Source: a virus. From it: a stretch of 23,297 nt of DNA. Location of the stretch: IMG/VR virus record IMGVR_UViG_3300015245_000225, positions 1 through 23,297 of that record; one strand, 5' to 3'. This document shows positions 11,576-16,189 of the stretch, piece by piece (positions within the stretch are counted from its first letter, which is position 1; every line of letters starts with the position of its first letter). The notes beneath the pieces were generated by a model that ran no database searches, had not been told where the DNA came from, and saw only the letters and a program-made list of their open reading frames with translations. A program made the translations under genes and the position numbers.

Positions 11576-13594
11576 ATGAGCAAGCCCGTTACGATTCCAA
11601 ACGTCTTTGCCACGCAGTCTGGCAACGTTCCGGCGAGCGAACTGGACGCGGACTACAACGTACTCTCCGCTGCGATCAACGATTTCGTAACCTACGCCAA
11701 TTTCCTGTCGGACGCGGGCGCGGTGAACGCGATCGTTGTCTCCACTCCGGCAAACACCACCTTTTCCCTCGTCGGCGGCGTCTGGTTCGACTGCATGGTG
11801 GCGAACGCGAACACCTCGGCGAGTGTAACGGCCAACCCCAACGGGCTCGGTGCCACTCCGGTGCGCGACGCCAGCGGCAACGCCCTGGCGATCGGCGCGC
11901 TTCAGGCGAACACGATCTACCGCTTTGTCTACGACGGCGCCGCATTCTTCCGAGTCATCGCTCAGAGTGCGGTTCCCTTCTACCCTCCCACCGCCACTGA
12001 AATATCGGCCGCCTCCACGATCGTCGCCTACTTTTACGCGCCCGGAGATGTGCGCCGATATGGCGCCGATCCGCTCGGTGTCGCTGATTCTGCGACCGCC
12101 TATCAGCAGGCATCGAACAGCAATTTGAAGGTGGATATGCCAGAGGGCACTTACAAAATCGCCGTTCAGGTTACATGCGTTGCCCGTCCCGTCACCTACA
12201 TAGGAGCTGCGCGCGGGGCCACCAAACTCATTCTGTCTACCAATACAGATGCTTTCAAATGGAGCGGGGCAGGTTCTGGCGGCGGCATGAAAAGATGCGT
12301 TCTTCAGGTGAGTGGCATGACTGGTGGCTACGCTCTTAGCGTCACCACTCAGGGCCGATGGTTGGCTGAAGATATGAACGTCATCACCAACAGTACTGGA
12401 GCAGGGGCCTTTTACGCCGCTGATTTCAACAGCGTCACCTTCAGAGATATATGGCTCAACGGCAGCTATGGAACGAACGGTGCAGCGATCTATCTTTTCG
12501 GGTCTGGCGCGGCATCGGCATTGGTCGCAGATATCAACAATGTCCAATACGGTGGTTCTGGAGGCGCATCTGCCACTTCATCATACGGGCTTGTTGTCGA
12601 TGGCGGTGTAGCAACCGTCAACATCCGTAGCTTCTCATCTGTGGCTTGCTTTTGCGGCGTGATAACGCTGAATACATCTGCAGTCACCAACTTCGCCCAA
12701 TTCATCGAAGGCGATAACGTTCAGGTCGATGGCTGCTACGGCGATGGAATAGTTTTGGGCACAGCTGGGGCTGGCAACACGACGGGCCACAACTTTGCTA
12801 TGACCTATGTCCATCACACCGGACAGAACAATTCAGGCGCAGGTATTGGTAAAGGAACAGGGATTTACATCTACGCCAACTGTCGCGCCTCGAGATTTCA
12901 GGGCGGGGACATACTCACCTGCAACTTGGGCGGCATGTTCATCGACGGAAACAATATCCAAGTTTCTGATATGGATATCCGTAAAAACAGCCAGGATGCT
13001 GTTGGCACCTATCCTGCCATTCAGCTTGGGGCCAATTCCTTTGGCAATAACATCCATCACAACACGCTCGGGCAAAACAGCGGCGCAGCGACATCCGATC
13101 AGTCCTATGGCGTGCAGATTGACTTAGGATCTAGCCAGAACATCGTCGTCCATAACTACATGCTGCTCAACACGCTGGGCGCGATCCTTGATAATTCCGG
13201 TGACACCAACAGCATCATCAAGGACAACCTCTACGCCGGCAACTCGACCTTCCACTCGGCGCTCGGACCGGCTGCAATGGCCGCGACGGTTAACAATTAC
13301 AACCCGACCAGCTGGAACGTCAACGTCACGCACCTGCGCCTCACGCCGGCGGCCGGCGGCACCACGGTCAATGGTCTCTTTTCCGGTACCGTGGCGAGCG
13401 TTTGGATACACGGCTCTACACTTGTGATCGAGAACCTGTCCTCGGCAGATAGCCTTACGTTCACTCACCTCAACGCCAGCTCGAATTCGTGGAACAGGTT
13501 CTCCCTTAAGAACGCAGTAAGCCTAGTGCTCGCGCCTTTTGAATCGCGCCAATTTATGTACAACACGATCCTTTCAAAGTGGCAAGCGATATGA
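11576..13594 (+). CDS. Tail spike with right-handed beta-helix (pectate-lyase-like) domain
   Basis: The 672-residue protein starts at ATG after AAGGTAGACC. The N-terminal 130 residues look like a virion attachment and beta module. VRRYGADPLGVADSATAYQQA (starting at residue 159) is the classic opening of the pectate lyase 3 / tail spike beta-helix domain, followed by MPEGTYKI. Residues 200-560 contain many Asn-, Gly- and Ser-rich coils such as NNIHHNTLGQNSG and GSSQNIVVHNYM, as expected for parallel beta-helix rungs. The C-terminus (about 560-672) is a separate domain that could trimerise. Spikes of this type bind or degrade surface polysaccharide. Catalytic residues cannot be assigned by eye. 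The stop overlaps the next start (ATGA). Confidence 0.8.
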   Translation: MSKPVTIPNVFATQSGNVPASELDADYNVLSAAINDFVTYANFLSDAGAVNAIVVSTPANTTFSLVGGVWFDCMVANANTSASVTANPNGLGATPVRDASGNALAIGALQANTIYRFVYDGAAFFRVIAQSAVPFYPPTATEISAASTIVAYFYAPGDVRRYGADPLGVADSATAYQQASNSNLKVDMPEGTYKIAVQVTCVARPVTYIGAARGATKLILSTNTDAFKWSGAGSGGGMKRCVLQVSGMTGGYALSVTTQGRWLAEDMNVITNSTGAGAFYAADFNSVTFRDIWLNGSYGTNGAAIYLFGSGAASALVADINNVQYGGSGGASATSSYGLVVDGGVATVNIRSFSSVACFCGVITLNTSAVTNFAQFIEGDNVQVDGCYGDGIVLGTAGAGNTTGHNFAMTYVHHTGQNNSGAGIGKGTGIYIYANCRASRFQGGDILTCNLGGMFIDGNNIQVSDMDIRKNSQDAVGTYPAIQLGANSFGNNIHHNTLGQNSGAATSDQSYGVQIDLGSSQNIVVHNYMLLNTLGAILDNSGDTNSIIKDNLYAGNSTFHSALGPAAMAATVNNYNPTSWNVNVTHLRLTPAAGGTTVNGLFSGTVASVWIHGSTLVIENLSSADSLTFTHLNASSNSWNRFSLKNAVSLVLAPFESRQFMYNTILSKWQAI

Positions 13595-13980
13595 GCGACC
13601 CTGACTTCAACGACCCGGTGTTTCTTAAAGGACAACTCAACCTCGCAGTTGCGGCGATCCGCTCGCGTGACCAGACGGCAGCCGAGATTACCGCGCGCTT
13701 GGAAGCCCAATACGCCGATCAATATGAGCAGATCAGGCTAGACGGAGAACGAGCGCGGAAGATGTTCGAGGAGAAGAAAGACGAGTTGCGCCAAGTCTCG
13801 CTCCGCTACGCCGCGCTGCGTCATTATCAAGTGCGCGTTCGCTCACTCGGGATACTCGCCAAGGGCAAGAGCCTAGACGCTGCGCTCGATAGCGTGCTGA
13901 AACAGATGGGCGCGCAGGAGGTCGAGAAGATGAGCATAGACGCTGGCGTTCGCAACGCGATTCTAGGGCGACTGCAGTGA
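13591..13980 (+). CDS. Helical protein downstream of the spike
   Basis: ATG at 13591 overlaps the spike stop in an ATGA, so I prefer it to the in-frame GTG at 13579. The product is 129 residues, highly charged and almost entirely helical, with a coiled-coil-like middle (AQYADQYEQIRLDGERARKM, FEEKKDELRQVSLRYAALRH). Genes directly after spikes or fibres often encode assembly chaperones, which are frequently coiled coils; that is inference from position. No membrane segment or enzyme motif is present. Confidence 0.6.
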   Translation: MSDPDFNDPVFLKGQLNLAVAAIRSRDQTAAEITARLEAQYADQYEQIRLDGERARKMFEEKKDELRQVSLRYAALRHYQVRVRSLGILAKGKSLDAALDSVLKQMGAQEVEKMSIDAGVRNAILGRLQ

Positions 13981-14438
13981 TCCTCCCGCTCTCCCGCACG
14001 GCTTCGACAGAACTGGCGACCAGTGGCACGCTCCTGGCCGCAGACTCGCTGTTCCACACGATCGAGCAGCCGTGGCGTAACAATCTGAAGGGTCACTCGT
14101 GCGTGCCGGTGGGAACCTACGACCTGATTCCCTACCAATCGCCGCGCCACGGTGCCACGTGGCAGCTGCACAATCCCGCGCTGAACATCTACGGACGCGG
14201 AAACGTGCCGGAAGGCGGGCGTTCAGCGTGCGAAATTCACTCTGCGAACTGGGCCGAGCAGCTTGAGGGCTGCATTGCGCTGGGACTGGATGACAAGCCA
14301 ATGTTTGACCCTCTGACTGGGAAGGTCGAGCCCAGTATCGAAGGCAGTCGTGACGCCGTGGCTCACCTGCACGCAATCCTCGGTGAGATGTCTCATGGGC
14401 ACACGCTGGTTATTTCAGAGCAAGGAGTACCGACATGA
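13977..14438 (+). CDS. DUF5675-like protein in the lysis cassette
   Basis: The gene starts at GTG overlapping the previous stop (GTGA) and encodes 153 residues. The pattern SCVPVGTYDLIPYQSPRHGATWQL (residues 41-64) followed by CEIHSANWAEQLEGCIALG (residues 85-103) fits the DUF5675 family found in phages and bacteria, whose function is not established to my knowledge. Cys42, Cys85, His88 and Cys99 stand out. The arrangement of a His shortly before a Gly-Cys-Ile recalls the His and Cys of YkuD-type L,D-transpeptidases, but I have no alignment to support that. It opens a cassette of membrane proteins and spanins where an endolysin would be expected, and no other gene in the window looks like one. 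A role in cell-wall processing is therefore a reasonable hypothesis. Confidence 0.65.
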   Translation: MILPLSRTASTELATSGTLLAADSLFHTIEQPWRNNLKGHSCVPVGTYDLIPYQSPRHGATWQLHNPALNIYGRGNVPEGGRSACEIHSANWAEQLEGCIALGLDDKPMFDPLTGKVEPSIEGSRDAVAHLHAILGEMSHGHTLVISEQGVPT

Positions 14439-14587
14439 CCGACCCCGTAAAACCTGTAATCGACGCGCTCGAGGCCTCCGGCCAGCGCCAGGGCAGCAAG
14501 GCATGGGCGTGGCTCAAGGTTCACTGGTACGCCGCCGGGATAGGTGCGGCCGCCGGCGCGATCGTCGGCCATCTTTTTTGGAAGTGA
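14435..14587 (+). CDS. Membrane microprotein (50 residues)
   Basis: The frame begins at ATG overlapping the DUF5675-like stop (ATGA), with AAGGAG nine bases upstream. It encodes a polar N-terminal half (MTDPVKPVIDALEASGQRQG) and one Gly/Ala-rich hydrophobic helix at the C-terminus (residues 32-49, YAAGIGAAAGAIVGHLFW), ending in Lys. A single small helix rich in Gly and Ala fits a pinholin-, antiholin- or holin-like role, but could also be an accessory membrane protein. It is the first of four consecutive membrane proteins before the spanins. Confidence 0.55.
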   Translation: MTDPVKPVIDALEASGQRQGSKAWAWLKVHWYAAGIGAAAGAIVGHLFWK

Positions 14588-14588
14588 C

Positions 14589-14801
14589 GTGCAAATTTCG
14601 AGCGACGACATTGCCCCGATCCTGACCGCCGCAGCACTGGTAGTGACCGCGCTCGGGACTGCGATCACCGGCCTTGTGATTGTCCTGCGCCAGGGGCGCG
14701 TGCAACGAGAACATGGAGCGGCCATTGCCCAGCTCAAGACCGGAACAACCGGCATCCACCAAACGCTCGGAGAAGCGCCAGCGAAACCGCCGGAGCCGTA
14801 A
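14589..14801 (+). CDS. Single-helix membrane protein, holin candidate (70 residues)
   Basis: I place the start at GTG 14589, one base after the previous stop, with GGAAG upstream. The N-terminus is short and acidic (ISSDDIAPIL), followed by one long hydrophobic helix (residues 9-32, TAAALVVTALGTAITGLVIVL), a basic patch (RQGRVQRE) and a Pro-rich end. An outside N-terminus, one helix and a basic inside C-terminus resemble small phage holins and holin-like proteins. Its neighbours on both sides also have membrane segments, so which one forms the lysis hole cannot be told from sequence alone. Its stop overlaps the next start by one base. Confidence 0.55.
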   Translation: MQISSDDIAPILTAAALVVTALGTAITGLVIVLRQGRVQREHGAAIAQLKTGTTGIHQTLGEAPAKPPEP

Positions 14802-15118
14802 TGGGTTTCGATCGCCACCCTACCTTTGGCCGGCGCGCGCCCGCGAAAGTAGAGGACGACGAGCTATCGCAGACCCACACTAACCTGCTCGCGATCTTCG
14901 ATCAGGAAATCCTCAGCCCGTCCGGACCGTCCAAGGCCATGCTCAATATCATGGTGGCGTGGATGGGACTCGCCCGCCCTCGCTTGGTGGCGCTCCACAA
15001 GGCCAAGGTCGCCGAGGAATTTCCGATCCTGAAGGAGCGCGTGGCGAATTGGATTTGGGTCATCATCGCGCAGTGGGCGGTGATTGGATTTCTAGCCGCA
15101 CTGGTGTTCAAGAAATGA
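14801..15118 (+). CDS. Tail-anchored membrane protein (105 residues)
   Basis: The product starts at ATG overlapping the previous stop. The first 75 residues are soluble and mixed in charge (FGRRAPAKVEDDELSQTHTN, SKAMLNIMVAWMGLARPRL). A single hydrophobic helix lies at the very end (residues 84-102, WIWVIIAQWAVIGFLAALV), closed by FKK. This topology places most of the protein in the cytoplasm. It lies between two other membrane proteins in the lysis cassette. I know no family for it; a holin regulator is one option. Confidence 0.6.
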   Translation: MGFDRHPTFGRRAPAKVEDDELSQTHTNLLAIFDQEILSPSGPSKAMLNIMVAWMGLARPRLVALHKAKVAEEFPILKERVANWIWVIIAQWAVIGFLAALVFKK

Positions 15119-15537
15119 GCGAGGAGGCGAAATGGGCGTTGCTCGCCTGCGGGTCTCTCGCCGCGCTGATCGTGCTGCTGTATTTCAGAGCGAGAGCGCA
15201 CGCCAAATTTCTGCACGGTCACATTGATCGCAAAATTGACGTGGTGCATCAGAAGGTCGAGGACGTGAAGGTGGCCGTGGAGGGCAGCCGACTGGAAGCG
15301 GAGGACGCTACGCTGAAGGCACGCGCACACGCCGGCTATCTCACGGCGATGGTGGAGGGCAGTCGCAAGGATGCTGCGAAGGCCGTGGAGGGTATGCGCA
15401 CTGCCTTGCACGACAGTGATGCAGCGGCTGCACTTGAAGGTGAGAAGAACCGTAGCCAAAATAAGTTGTTTCAAAGCACATTCTTCCGCCATGTCCTTGA
15501 GTTTATGAAGTCCGTGGTGAACGGTAAGTCAAAGTGA
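15115..15537 (+). CDS. Membrane-anchored coiled-coil protein
   Basis: I choose ATG at 15115, which overlaps the previous stop (ATGA), instead of the longer in-frame start at 14959 that would run through the neighbour. The 140 residues start with one membrane helix (residues 7-23, WALLACGSLAALIVLLYF), then RARAHAKFLHG and a long Ala/Glu/Lys helix with two similar parts: EGSRLEAEDATLKARAHAGY and EGSRKDAAKAVEGMRTALHD. The segment EGSR occurs twice, 24 residues apart. The end is polar (KSVVNGKSK). It may be an accessory lysis or envelope protein. Function is unknown. Confidence 0.6.
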   Translation: MSEEAKWALLACGSLAALIVLLYFRARAHAKFLHGHIDRKIDVVHQKVEDVKVAVEGSRLEAEDATLKARAHAGYLTAMVEGSRKDAAKAVEGMRTALHDSDAAAALEGEKNRSQNKLFQSTFFRHVLEFMKSVVNGKSK

Positions 15538-15713
15538 GCAGCGATCCTGAACTCAAGGCCGCCGTCGTTGATCTGACACTGCGCTATCGTCGGCTCCGCG
15601 CCGCACTGCGCACGATCTACAACACCGCCACCGCGCGCGGGCCGATCAACCTGGTGGCGCGCCTGACTGAGATAGAGGAAGTCTCAGGCCGGGCACTGGG
15701 GAGAATCAGGTGA
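15534..15713 (+). CDS. Small basic hypothetical protein (59 residues)
   Basis: The frame starts at GTG overlapping the previous stop (GTGA) and ends in a TGA overlapping the Rz start (GTGA). It encodes a helical, Arg-rich chain (DLTLRYRRLRAALRTIYN, then NLVARLTEIEEVSGRALGRI) without a membrane segment. Overlap at both ends argues strongly that it is a real gene. I cannot assign a function. Confidence 0.55.
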   Translation: MSSDPELKAAVVDLTLRYRRLRAALRTIYNTATARGPINLVARLTEIEEVSGRALGRIR

Positions 15714-16189
15714 CCACGAAGCTCGAAGCAATCCTCGTCGCCGTTGTGCTGGCGATGGGCGCGGCATGGTACTGGACGTGGCACGAGCGCAGCGTCGGCG
15801 CGGCGAAGTGCATCGCCAGTGACGCTAAGGCAGTCGTGAAGGAAGGAACCAAGAACGCGGCCGCCGAAGGGCGCGCCGGCGAAATCGTCAAGCAGGAGGC
15901 CACCGATCATGCGAACGCTATTGCCGCTCCCCTTGCTCCTGTCGCTACTCTCGGCGTGCAGCACGGTTCCAAACCATTCCGTTGCCGCACCTCAGTACCA
16001 GCCGCCGCCCCCGGACCCGTCGCTGAAACCGACCCCCTCCAATTCATTAGAATTACGGGTCCGACAGGCGATTTGCGTAAAGACTCTGACGCCGCTGACC
16101 GATCCACGGTGCAAATTGCCCGTGAAGGTGACGACACCATAGAGAAACTGTGGGACTACGCTACGCGGGTGTGTCCGCGGCCGAAATAA
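15710..16189 (+). CDS. Rz: Rz-like inner-membrane spanin
   Basis: The 159-residue product starts at GTG overlapping the previous stop. It has an N-terminal signal anchor (residues 5-22, LEAILVAVVLAMGAAWYW) followed by a charged periplasmic domain (KAVVKEGTKNAAAEGRAGEI). A lipoprotein gene, Rz1, lies entirely inside it in the +1 frame, which is the hallmark arrangement of lambda-type spanins. Rz and Rz1 span the periplasm and fuse the two membranes in the last step of lysis. The C-terminal half, where Rz1 overlaps, is Pro- and Ala-rich and less helical than in lambda Rz, as expected when one stretch encodes two proteins. Confidence 0.8.
   Translation: MTTKLEAILVAVVLAMGAAWYWTWHERSVGAAKCIASDAKAVVKEGTKNAAAEGRAGEIVKQEATDHANAIAAPLAPVATLGVQHGSKPFRCRTSVPAAAPGPVAETDPLQFIRITGPTGDLRKDSDAADRSTVQIAREGDDTIEKLWDYATRVCPRPK
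15894..15899 (+). promoter_or_regulatory. Ribosome binding site for nested Rz1
   Basis: AGGAGG lies within the Rz coding sequence, nine bases before the Rz1 ATG. It decides the start of the nested gene and allows independent initiation. Confidence 0.6.
15909..16142 (+). CDS. Rz1: Rz1-like outer-membrane spanin lipoprotein, nested in Rz
   Basis: The ATG lies in the +1 frame of Rz with AGGAGG nine bases upstream, and the frame ends inside Rz. The 77 residues begin with a lipoprotein signal, MRTLLPLPLLLSLLSAC, with lipobox LSAC at residues 14-17, followed by a Pro-rich stretch (PQYQPPPPDPSLKPTPS), which is typical for Rz1. After cleavage the acylated Cys17 would anchor it in the outer membrane, where it would pair with Rz. 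This lipoprotein also shows that the host is Gram-negative. The C-terminus has two further Cys residues that may form a disulfide. Confidence 0.85.
   Translation: MRTLLPLPLLLSLLSACSTVPNHSVAAPQYQPPPPDPSLKPTPSNSLELRVRQAICVKTLTPLTDPRCKLPVKVTTP

What the first reader, a model, noticed from the sequence alone, without database searches (positions are those of the whole stretch)
13977..14438. A DUF5675-like protein sits where the endolysin should be
The lysis cassette has membrane proteins and a spanin pair, but no gene in the window shows a lysozyme, amidase, peptidase or transglycosylase motif. The first gene carries a DUF5675-like sequence with Cys42, Cys85, His88 and Cys99, and a His followed by Gly-Cys-Ile as in some cell-wall L,D-transpeptidases. 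It may be a new type of phage cell-wall enzyme, or a wall-binding partner of an endolysin encoded elsewhere.
Basis: partly seen in the sequence, partly recalled or inferred. Interest (0 to 1): 0.65.

Follow-up and report, generated by a model that had tools for sequence, protein, structure and literature searches.

The report
Phage DUF5675 protein: a probable endolysin
A small phage protein of unknown function (family DUF5675) has the predicted fold of bacterial L,D-transpeptidases and, in three unrelated phage groups, sits exactly where close relatives carry an ordinary wall-cutting endolysin, so it is very probably the enzyme that breaks the host cell wall at lysis.

Summary
Window 13977-14438 encodes a DUF5675 protein (PF18925), first gene of a lysis cassette with membrane proteins and an embedded Rz/Rz1 pair; no other wall hydrolase is detected in the window. 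The 'new cell-wall enzyme' reading is supported. The AlphaFold2 model (pLDDT 95.5) matches only L,D-transpeptidase-fold structures (Pgp2 Z 11.1, LdtMt2 9.2, Tlde1a 9.1). His88, Gly98 and Cys99 are invariant in 17 phages; Cys85 is not conserved and Cys42 is replaceable. The decisive finding is precise exchange with known endolysins in otherwise collinear phages: a Peptidase_M15_3 endolysin in a sister of the window phage; a GH108 muramidase in a 93-97% DNA-identical relative of Vibrio phage martha 12B12; a SAR-endolysin in HP1-like Vibrio prophages. Each of 48 Mu-like lysis slots holds exactly one endolysin type. Best explanation: a soluble, holin-dependent Cys-His endolysin of the L,D-transpeptidase superfamily that cuts peptide stems. 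The role is strongly supported by comparative genomics; chemistry and the bond cut (mDAP3-D-Ala4 proposed) are inferred. In the databases and open-access library searched, DUF5675 (PHROG 1501) is still 'unknown function'. It is a new endolysin class inside a known kind of system.

The parts
13591..13980 (+). Conserved 129-aa gene just upstream of the endolysin slot; its stop overlaps the DUF5675 start (GTGA). Function unknown.
   Evidence: 67% identical homologue in the same place in L098; junction sequences
13977..14438 (+). DUF5675 protein, 153 aa, no hydrophobic signal or anchor segment seen: predicted L,D-transpeptidase-fold endolysin
   Evidence: Pfam PF18925 52.4 bits; AlphaFold2 pLDDT 95.5; structural matches all L,D-transpeptidase fold; hydropathy; replaced by a Peptidase_M15_3 endolysin in L098
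14238..14240 (+). His88 codon, predicted catalytic His (end of strand 86-88)
   Evidence: invariant in 17 phages aligned without motif bias and in 70 viral homologues
14271..14273 (+). Cys99 codon, predicted catalytic Cys, just before strand 100-103
   Evidence: invariant in the unbiased 17-phage set; model secondary structure
14435..14587 (+). 50-aa protein with one hydrophobic C-terminal segment, start overlapping the DUF5675 stop (ATGA); part of the swapped segment
   Evidence: ORF, hydropathy; no counterpart found by tblastn in L098
14589..14801 (+). 70-aa single-TM protein, holin-like candidate
   Evidence: hydropathy 2.38 at residue 15; 33% identical homologue in L098
14801..15118 (+). 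105-aa protein with C-terminal TM segment, cassette member (holin/antiholin candidate)
   Evidence: 61% identical homologue in L098; hydropathy 2.38 at residue 85
15115..15537 (+). 140-aa protein with N-terminal TM segment, cassette member
   Evidence: 33% identical homologue in L098; hydropathy 2.04 at residue 8
15534..15713 (+). 59-aa ORF of unknown function between the membrane genes and Rz
   Evidence: ORF only; no homologue found in L098
15710..16189 (+). Rz-like inner-membrane spanin, 159 aa
   Evidence: 77% identical homologue in L098; weak PHROG 'Rz-like spanin' hit, E 0.042
15909..16142 (+). Rz1-like outer-membrane lipoprotein spanin (LLSAC lipobox), embedded in Rz in another frame
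   Evidence: PHROG 'Rz-like spanin' hits, best E 0.012; 66% identical homologue in L098

Best explanation
The gene encodes the phage's endolysin. It is a single-domain soluble enzyme of about 150 residues with the L,D-transpeptidase (YkuD-superfamily) fold. It is made in the cytoplasm and released to the periplasm by a holin encoded just downstream. Cys99 would act as nucleophile, activated by His88. It would attack the peptide stem, most likely the L,D bond between mDAP3 and D-Ala4 (and 3-3 crosslinks), and the acyl-enzyme would be resolved by water, so that crosslinks are opened rather than made. The spanin pair then disrupts the outer membrane. Shown here by sequence comparison or structure prediction: family, fold, conserved His/Cys, cassette position, exchange with known endolysins. 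Inferred: hydrolysis, the bond cut, holin dependence.
For: (1) Fold: model pLDDT 95.5, pTM 0.90; all chains that reach Z 5 are L,D-transpeptidase/L,D-carboxypeptidase folds (Pgp2 6xj6 Z 11.1 over 117 residues, LdtMt2 9.2, Tlde1a 9.1, Bd1075 9.0), with no unrelated match at Z 2 or more. A second model from a Cellulophaga-phage homologue (pLDDT 96.8) gives Pgp2 12.3, Csd6 10.9, B. subtilis YkuD 10.5, DpaA 9.3, and then a drop to 2.5 for the first unrelated fold. (2) Sequence: Tlde1_dom matches 14 of 70 homologues, best E 7.8e-5. (3) Active site: R82, H88, N91, G98, C99, G103 invariant in 17 phages. (4) Exchange A, window lineage: L098 is collinear (spike 52%, upstream gene 67%, membrane proteins, Rz 77%, Rz1 66%) but carries a Peptidase_M15_3 (53.3 bits) / PHROG 'endolysin' gene in the DUF5675 slot, joined at the same 4-base start-stop overlap; its record has no DUF5675. 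(5) Exchange B, Mu-like: martha 12B12 and L106 are mostly 93-97% identical in DNA outside a swapped segment; homology resumes at the first codon after the DUF5675 stop and after the GH108 stop. In 48 Mu-like slots: GH108 40, lysozyme 5, Amidase_2 1, SLT 1, DUF5675 1, never two. (6) Exchange C, HP1-like: DUF5675 plus a 3-TM holin against holin plus SAR-endolysin plus spanin between the same flanking genes. (7) 15 gammaproteobacterial chromosomal copies all lie in these two prophage lysis slots. (8) Peptidase_M15_3, Phage_lysozyme and Amidase_2 are absent from all 48 DUF5675-carrying records tested; martha 12B12 and phi39:1 show no other wall-hydrolase Pfam among the proteins scanned. (9) A small TM gene lies directly beside DUF5675 in 46 of 66 loci (downstream in 29 of 66; background 8%).
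Against: No biochemistry exists. The canonical motif (S/T)HGC is not present (only GC), and the His-Cys spacing is short, so catalysis and bond specificity are uncertain. Superposition of H88/C99 on a known site could not be inspected residue by residue (no coordinates available). Profile-profile comparison with E. coli LDTs was not significant, although it paired His with His and Cys with Cys. The absence of one common family proves little: only 5 of 50 Mu-like controls have Phage_lysozyme. One DUF5675 record also has an SLT protein far from the gene, and G001 has an NlpC/P60 protein in its tail module. Known L,D-carboxypeptidases trim stems without lysing cells at once. In one large phage (L188) the gene is not beside an obvious lysis cassette.
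Confidence: 0.8

Rival explanations
1. An L,D-transpeptidase-fold wall-modifying enzyme (D-amino-acid exchange or 3-3 crosslinking) that weakens or protects the wall, while lysis depends on another, unrecognised protein.
For: The closest fold matches include enzymes that exchange or crosslink; Tlde1a does carboxypeptidation, exchange and some crosslinking and kills without an endolysin (PMC9638812).
Against: In three lineages the gene takes the place of an endolysin one for one, with no second candidate recognised in the swapped segment. A wall builder would not be expected to replace GH108, GH24 and M15 hydrolases.
Confidence: 0.1
2. A non-catalytic wall-binding or accessory partner of an endolysin encoded elsewhere in the genome.
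For: The window is a 23-kb fragment, so an endolysin outside it is possible.
Against: His/Cys invariance; replacement, not accompaniment, of endolysins; no other candidate in the scanned proteins of martha 12B12 and phi39:1 or among the annotated genes of the 5-kb microvirus.
Confidence: 0.04
3. A virion-borne wall enzyme used for DNA entry, placed near tail genes.
For: Cassettes often follow tail-fibre genes; a DUF5675 domain occurs within a very large protein of Ralstonia phage RP31.
Against: Neighbours are holin-like and spanin genes, and in Mu-like phages the gene follows the late activator, away from the tail genes.
Confidence: 0.03
4. An endolysin of this fold that cuts a different bond (for example L-Ala-D-Glu or an amide), not mDAP3-D-Ala4. 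This shares the best explanation except for the last step.
For: Motif differs from canonical LDTs; DpaA of the same fold cleaves a protein-wall link (fold match Z 9.3).
Against: Characterised members of the YkuD family act as LD-transpeptidases, LD-carboxypeptidases or LD-endopeptidases (PMC12729407).
Confidence: 0.3

Closest known systems
L,D-transpeptidases / L,D-carboxypeptidases of the YkuD superfamily (Pgp2, Csd6, YkuD, LdtMt2, Bd1075)
   Same: Predicted fold over 95-117 residues; His then Gly-Cys-hydrophobic before a strand; 'P-x-G-x-Y' segment upstream
   Different: No hydrophobic secretion segment or accessory domains; (S/T)HGC reduced to GC; fails the YkuD profile; phage-borne and in lysis cassettes
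Tlde1 domain (PF10908, formerly DUF2778), antibacterial type VI effector
   Same: Nearest Pfam family by sequence (14 of 70 homologues, best E 7.8e-5); same size class and fold (Z 9.1); also turned against bacterial walls
   Different: Window protein scores below the family cut-off (14.4 against 30.1 bits); secretion-system effector, not a lysis gene; acts by stem trimming and D-amino-acid exchange
Classical Gram-negative phage endolysins (GH24, GH108, M15, Amidase_2, SLT)
   Same: Same slot, same holin/spanin neighbours, one per phage
   Different: Unrelated folds and chemistry: muramidases, zinc peptidases, zinc amidases or transglycosylases against a proposed Cys-His peptidase
Phage lytic proteins with YkuD domains in PhaLP (10 entries)
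   Same: Same superfamily used by phages (PMC8310338)
   Different: PhaLP lists PF03734, PF10908 and cd16913 for this group, not PF18925; a gut-phage survey reports one YkuD domain fused to GH25 (PMC13284279)
crAss-like phage cr116_1 'L,D-carboxypeptidase/transpeptidase'
   Same: Fold match TM 0.65 in BFVD
   Different: 17% identity; name is an annotation, context not examined here

Membership tests
DUF5675 (PF18925 / PHROG 1501) | Score above the Pfam gathering cut-off | tested here: met
   52.4 bits against 26.7; PHROG 1501 E 7.3e-20
YkuD superfamily (L,D-transpeptidase fold) | L,D-transpeptidase fold | tested here: met
   All matches with Z 5 or more are this fold for two separate models, with a gap to unrelated folds; predicted, not solved
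YkuD superfamily (L,D-transpeptidase fold) | Conserved His and Cys nucleophile | tested here: met
   H88 and C99 invariant in 17 phages fetched without using the GC motif; spatial proximity not inspected
YkuD family proper (PF03734) | YkuD profile match | tested here: not met
   No hit for the window protein; 1 of 70 homologues at E 0.14
YkuD family proper (PF03734) | Motif HXX14-17-(S/T)HGCh | tested here: not met
   DUF5675 has H-x10-C in the window protein, and Gly but not (S/T)H before Cys; motif as given in PMC9638812
YkuD family proper (PF03734) | L,D-transpeptidase, carboxypeptidase or endopeptidase activity | not testable with these tools
   needs purified protein
Tlde1 domain (PF10908) | Score above the Pfam gathering cut-off | tested here: not met
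   14.4 bits against 30.1 for the window protein; best homologue E 7.8e-5
Phage endolysin (functional class) | Encoded in a lysis cassette with holin and spanin genes | tested here: met
   Window cassette and L098 collinearity; Pfam 3-TM holin next to DUF5675 in L192
Phage endolysin (functional class) | Occupies the place of, and excludes, other endolysins in near relatives | tested here: met
   Three exchanges and 48 Mu-like slots with one type each
Phage endolysin (functional class) | Peptidoglycan hydrolysis and requirement for lysis | not testable with these tools
   needs experiment
NlpC/P60 | Papain-like fold / Pfam match | tested here: inconclusive
   No Pfam match for the window protein; not listed among structural matches, but the list is a re-alignment of Foldseek's top 1000 only

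The most novel reading that the evidence does not exclude
DUF5675 is a separate, widespread class of single-domain endolysins: L,D-transpeptidase-fold Cys-His enzymes turned into fast lytic L,D-endopeptidases, used by Mu-like, HP1-like, siphovirus, podovirus and even 5-kb microvirus phages of Gram-negative bacteria, and perhaps inhibited by carbapenems as other enzymes of the fold are.
Probability: 0.5. Interest if true: 0.75.

Novelty: new variant of a known kind. Interest (0 to 1): 0.62.

Why it matters
A widespread phage family that the tested databases call 'unknown function' gets a testable role, and phages such as Vibrio phage martha 12B12 and Cellulophaga phage phi39:1, in which no endolysin is annotated, get a candidate. 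It would show that a fold known for building and trimming walls can serve as a stand-alone lytic enzyme, with an unusual prediction for an endolysin: lysis sensitive to L,D-transpeptidase inhibitors. It also gives an annotation rule (PF18925 in a holin/spanin neighbourhood means endolysin).

Tried and rejected
phmmer of the window protein against PDB gave no relative, and a profile search gave only a chance motif match to coagulation factor X. Foldseek alone against PDB gave no significant match; the L,D-transpeptidase fold appeared only on re-alignment by VIA-align 2, so the second model was made to check it. hhalign against E. coli LDTs was not significant. The idea that absence of Phage_lysozyme in DUF5675 phages is by itself strong evidence was dropped after the Mu-like control (5 of 50 positive). 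The GH108 absence search rang in no control genome and is not used. The DUF5675 loci fetched with alignment A2 were found with a GCI-containing pattern, so conservation of Gly98-Cys99 in A3 is biased; the 17-phage set, nearly all from a tblastn search, was used instead. Cys85 and Cys42 were rejected as catalytic because they are not conserved. Genome scans with alignments A2/A3 were not possible, so a single protein was used. NlpC/P60 did not appear among the structural matches. Literature: only two papers in the library mention DUF5675, both as an unassigned protein.

Full report
What is there. The ORF at 13977-14438 (+) encodes 153 residues and belongs to DUF5675: Pfam 52.4 bits against a cut-off of 26.7, PHROG 1501, unknown function. 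It is the first gene of a cassette that continues with four small membrane proteins (14435-15537), a 59-aa ORF and an Rz-like gene at 15710-16189 with an Rz1-like lipoprotein gene embedded at 15909-16142. A Pfam scan of 35 window ORFs finds no known wall hydrolase. The window is a 23,297-base virus record, so it is a fragment and genes outside it are unseen.

Fold. With 70 viral homologues AlphaFold2 gives pLDDT 95.5 and pTM 0.90. Foldseek against PDB alone finds nothing significant, but re-alignment of its candidates finds 25 chains with Z of 5 or more, every listed one an L,D-transpeptidase or L,D-carboxypeptidase fold: Pgp2 11.1 (117 residues), LdtMt2 9.2, Tlde1a 9.1, Bd1075 9.0. No other fold reaches Z 2. 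Because middling Z values can mislead, a second model was made from a distant homologue, the Cellulophaga phage phi39:1 protein (pLDDT 96.8). It gives Pgp2 12.3, Csd6 10.9, YkuD 10.5 and DpaA 9.3; L,D-transpeptidase folds fill every place down to Z 7.2, and the next fold scores 2.5. Sequence agrees: Tlde1_dom, an L,D-transpeptidase-type domain, matches 14 of 70 homologues, best E 7.8e-5. In the viral structure library the protein matches other DUF5675 proteins and a crAss-like phage protein named L,D-carboxypeptidase/transpeptidase.

Active site. In 17 phages collected without use of the GC motif, Glu30, Asn36, Ser41, Gly46, Tyr48, Arg82, His88, Asn91, Gly98, Cys99, Gly103 and Ser124 are invariant. 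Cys42 is Ser or Arg in some, and Cys85 varies. The order His, then Gly-Cys-hydrophobic just before a strand, is that of L,D-transpeptidases, but the canonical (S/T)HGC is reduced to GC (motif from PMC9638812), so membership in the YkuD family proper is not met, while the fold is.

Exchange with known endolysins. (A) A search with the upstream gene found L098, collinear with the window: tail spike 52%, upstream gene 67%, three membrane proteins 33-61%, Rz 77%, Rz1 66% identical. In the DUF5675 slot it has a 149-aa Peptidase_M15_3 protein (53.3 bits; PHROG endolysin E 5e-26). In both phages the upstream stop and the endolysin start overlap by four bases, GTGA or ATGA. The L098 record has no DUF5675 and the window has no M15. 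(B) Vibrio phage martha 12B12 has DUF5675 behind the late activator, where Mu-like phages carry their lysozyme. Its relative L106 is mostly 93-97% identical in DNA on both sides; homology stops at the activator and resumes directly after the DUF5675 stop on one side and after the stop of a GH108 endolysin on the other. Among 48 Mu-like loci fetched with the terminase the slot holds GH108 in 40, lysozyme in 5, Amidase_2 in 1, SLT in 1 and DUF5675 in 1, never two. (C) In HP1-like Vibrio prophages L192 has DUF5675 plus a 3-TM holin between the YbiI-like gene and the HP1 orf26 homologue, where L195 has holin, SAR-endolysin and spanin. Fifteen gammaproteobacterial chromosomal copies of DUF5675 all lie in slots B or C.

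Wider context. In 48 DUF5675 records no Peptidase_M15_3, Phage_lysozyme or Amidase_2 was found, and one has an SLT protein far away. The value of such absences is limited, since only 5 of 50 Mu-like controls have Phage_lysozyme. Martha 12B12 and phi39:1 have no annotated endolysin and no wall-hydrolase Pfam among the proteins scanned other than DUF5675 itself. A small hydrophobic gene lies directly beside DUF5675 in 46 of 66 viral loci; for the downstream neighbour alone it is 29 of 66, against 8% of ORFs further away, with a crude gene caller. The gene also occurs in a 5-kb microvirus as the only candidate wall enzyme. The nearest relative of the window protein (60%) is in a phage with an unrelated tail and head module, with a holin-like and an Rz-like gene next to it, which suggests transfer of the lysis module.

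Mechanism. The best account is a cytoplasmic endolysin released by a holin, in which Cys99, activated by His88, attacks the stem peptide and water resolves the acyl-enzyme. The bond is inferred from characterised relatives, such as Tlde1a, which cleaves between mDAP3 and D-Ala4 (PMC9638812; review PMC12729407). Cutting the donor stem of a 4-3 crosslink there would open the mesh. This step is unproven, and a different bond is a serious alternative. Carbapenem sensitivity of the fold is taken from the review and is a prediction here.

Novelty. YkuD-type domains are listed for ten phage lytic proteins in PhaLP (PMC8310338), so phage use of the superfamily is not wholly new. DUF5675 itself is 'unknown function' in Pfam and PHROGs, has no NCBIfam match for the window protein, and appears in two papers of the searched library only as an unassigned protein. 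Papers outside that open-access library could not be checked. I rate it a new variant of a known kind.

Noticed in passing
L196:3010-3519 and L197:2993-3490: In two HP1-like Vibrio phages the endolysin slot holds a 165-169-aa gene with no Pfam hit (PHROG 3108, unknown function; annotated in one record as an RNA polymerase subunit). It may be a further unrecognised endolysin.
   Followed up: partly
L095:66-638 and L095:1074-2357: The phage with the closest DUF5675 homologue carries an Lcl_C lectin-like protein and a reverse transcriptase nearby, as in a diversity-generating retroelement.
   Followed up: no
L007:7-384: A 5-kb Microviridae genome carries DUF5675 as its only recognisable candidate wall enzyme; similar hits occur in other microviruses.
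   Followed up: partly
BFVD entry A0A1L7N1E2 (Ralstonia phage RP31): A DUF5675 domain lies inside a very large protein of a Ralstonia phage, which suggests a virion-associated use of the same domain.
   Followed up: no
L188:2983-3381: In the 137-kb Vibrio phage vB_CoeS_P1 the DUF5675 gene sits among nucleotide-metabolism and phoH genes, not beside an obvious lysis cassette.
   Followed up: no
L017 record (G005), about 50.5 kb: One DUF5675-carrying record also has an SLT transglycosylase protein, far from the DUF5675 gene; it may be virion-borne.
   Followed up: no
window 13591-13980: A conserved 129-aa gene of unknown function directly precedes the endolysin slot in both the window and L098 and is not replaced with it.
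   Followed up: partly
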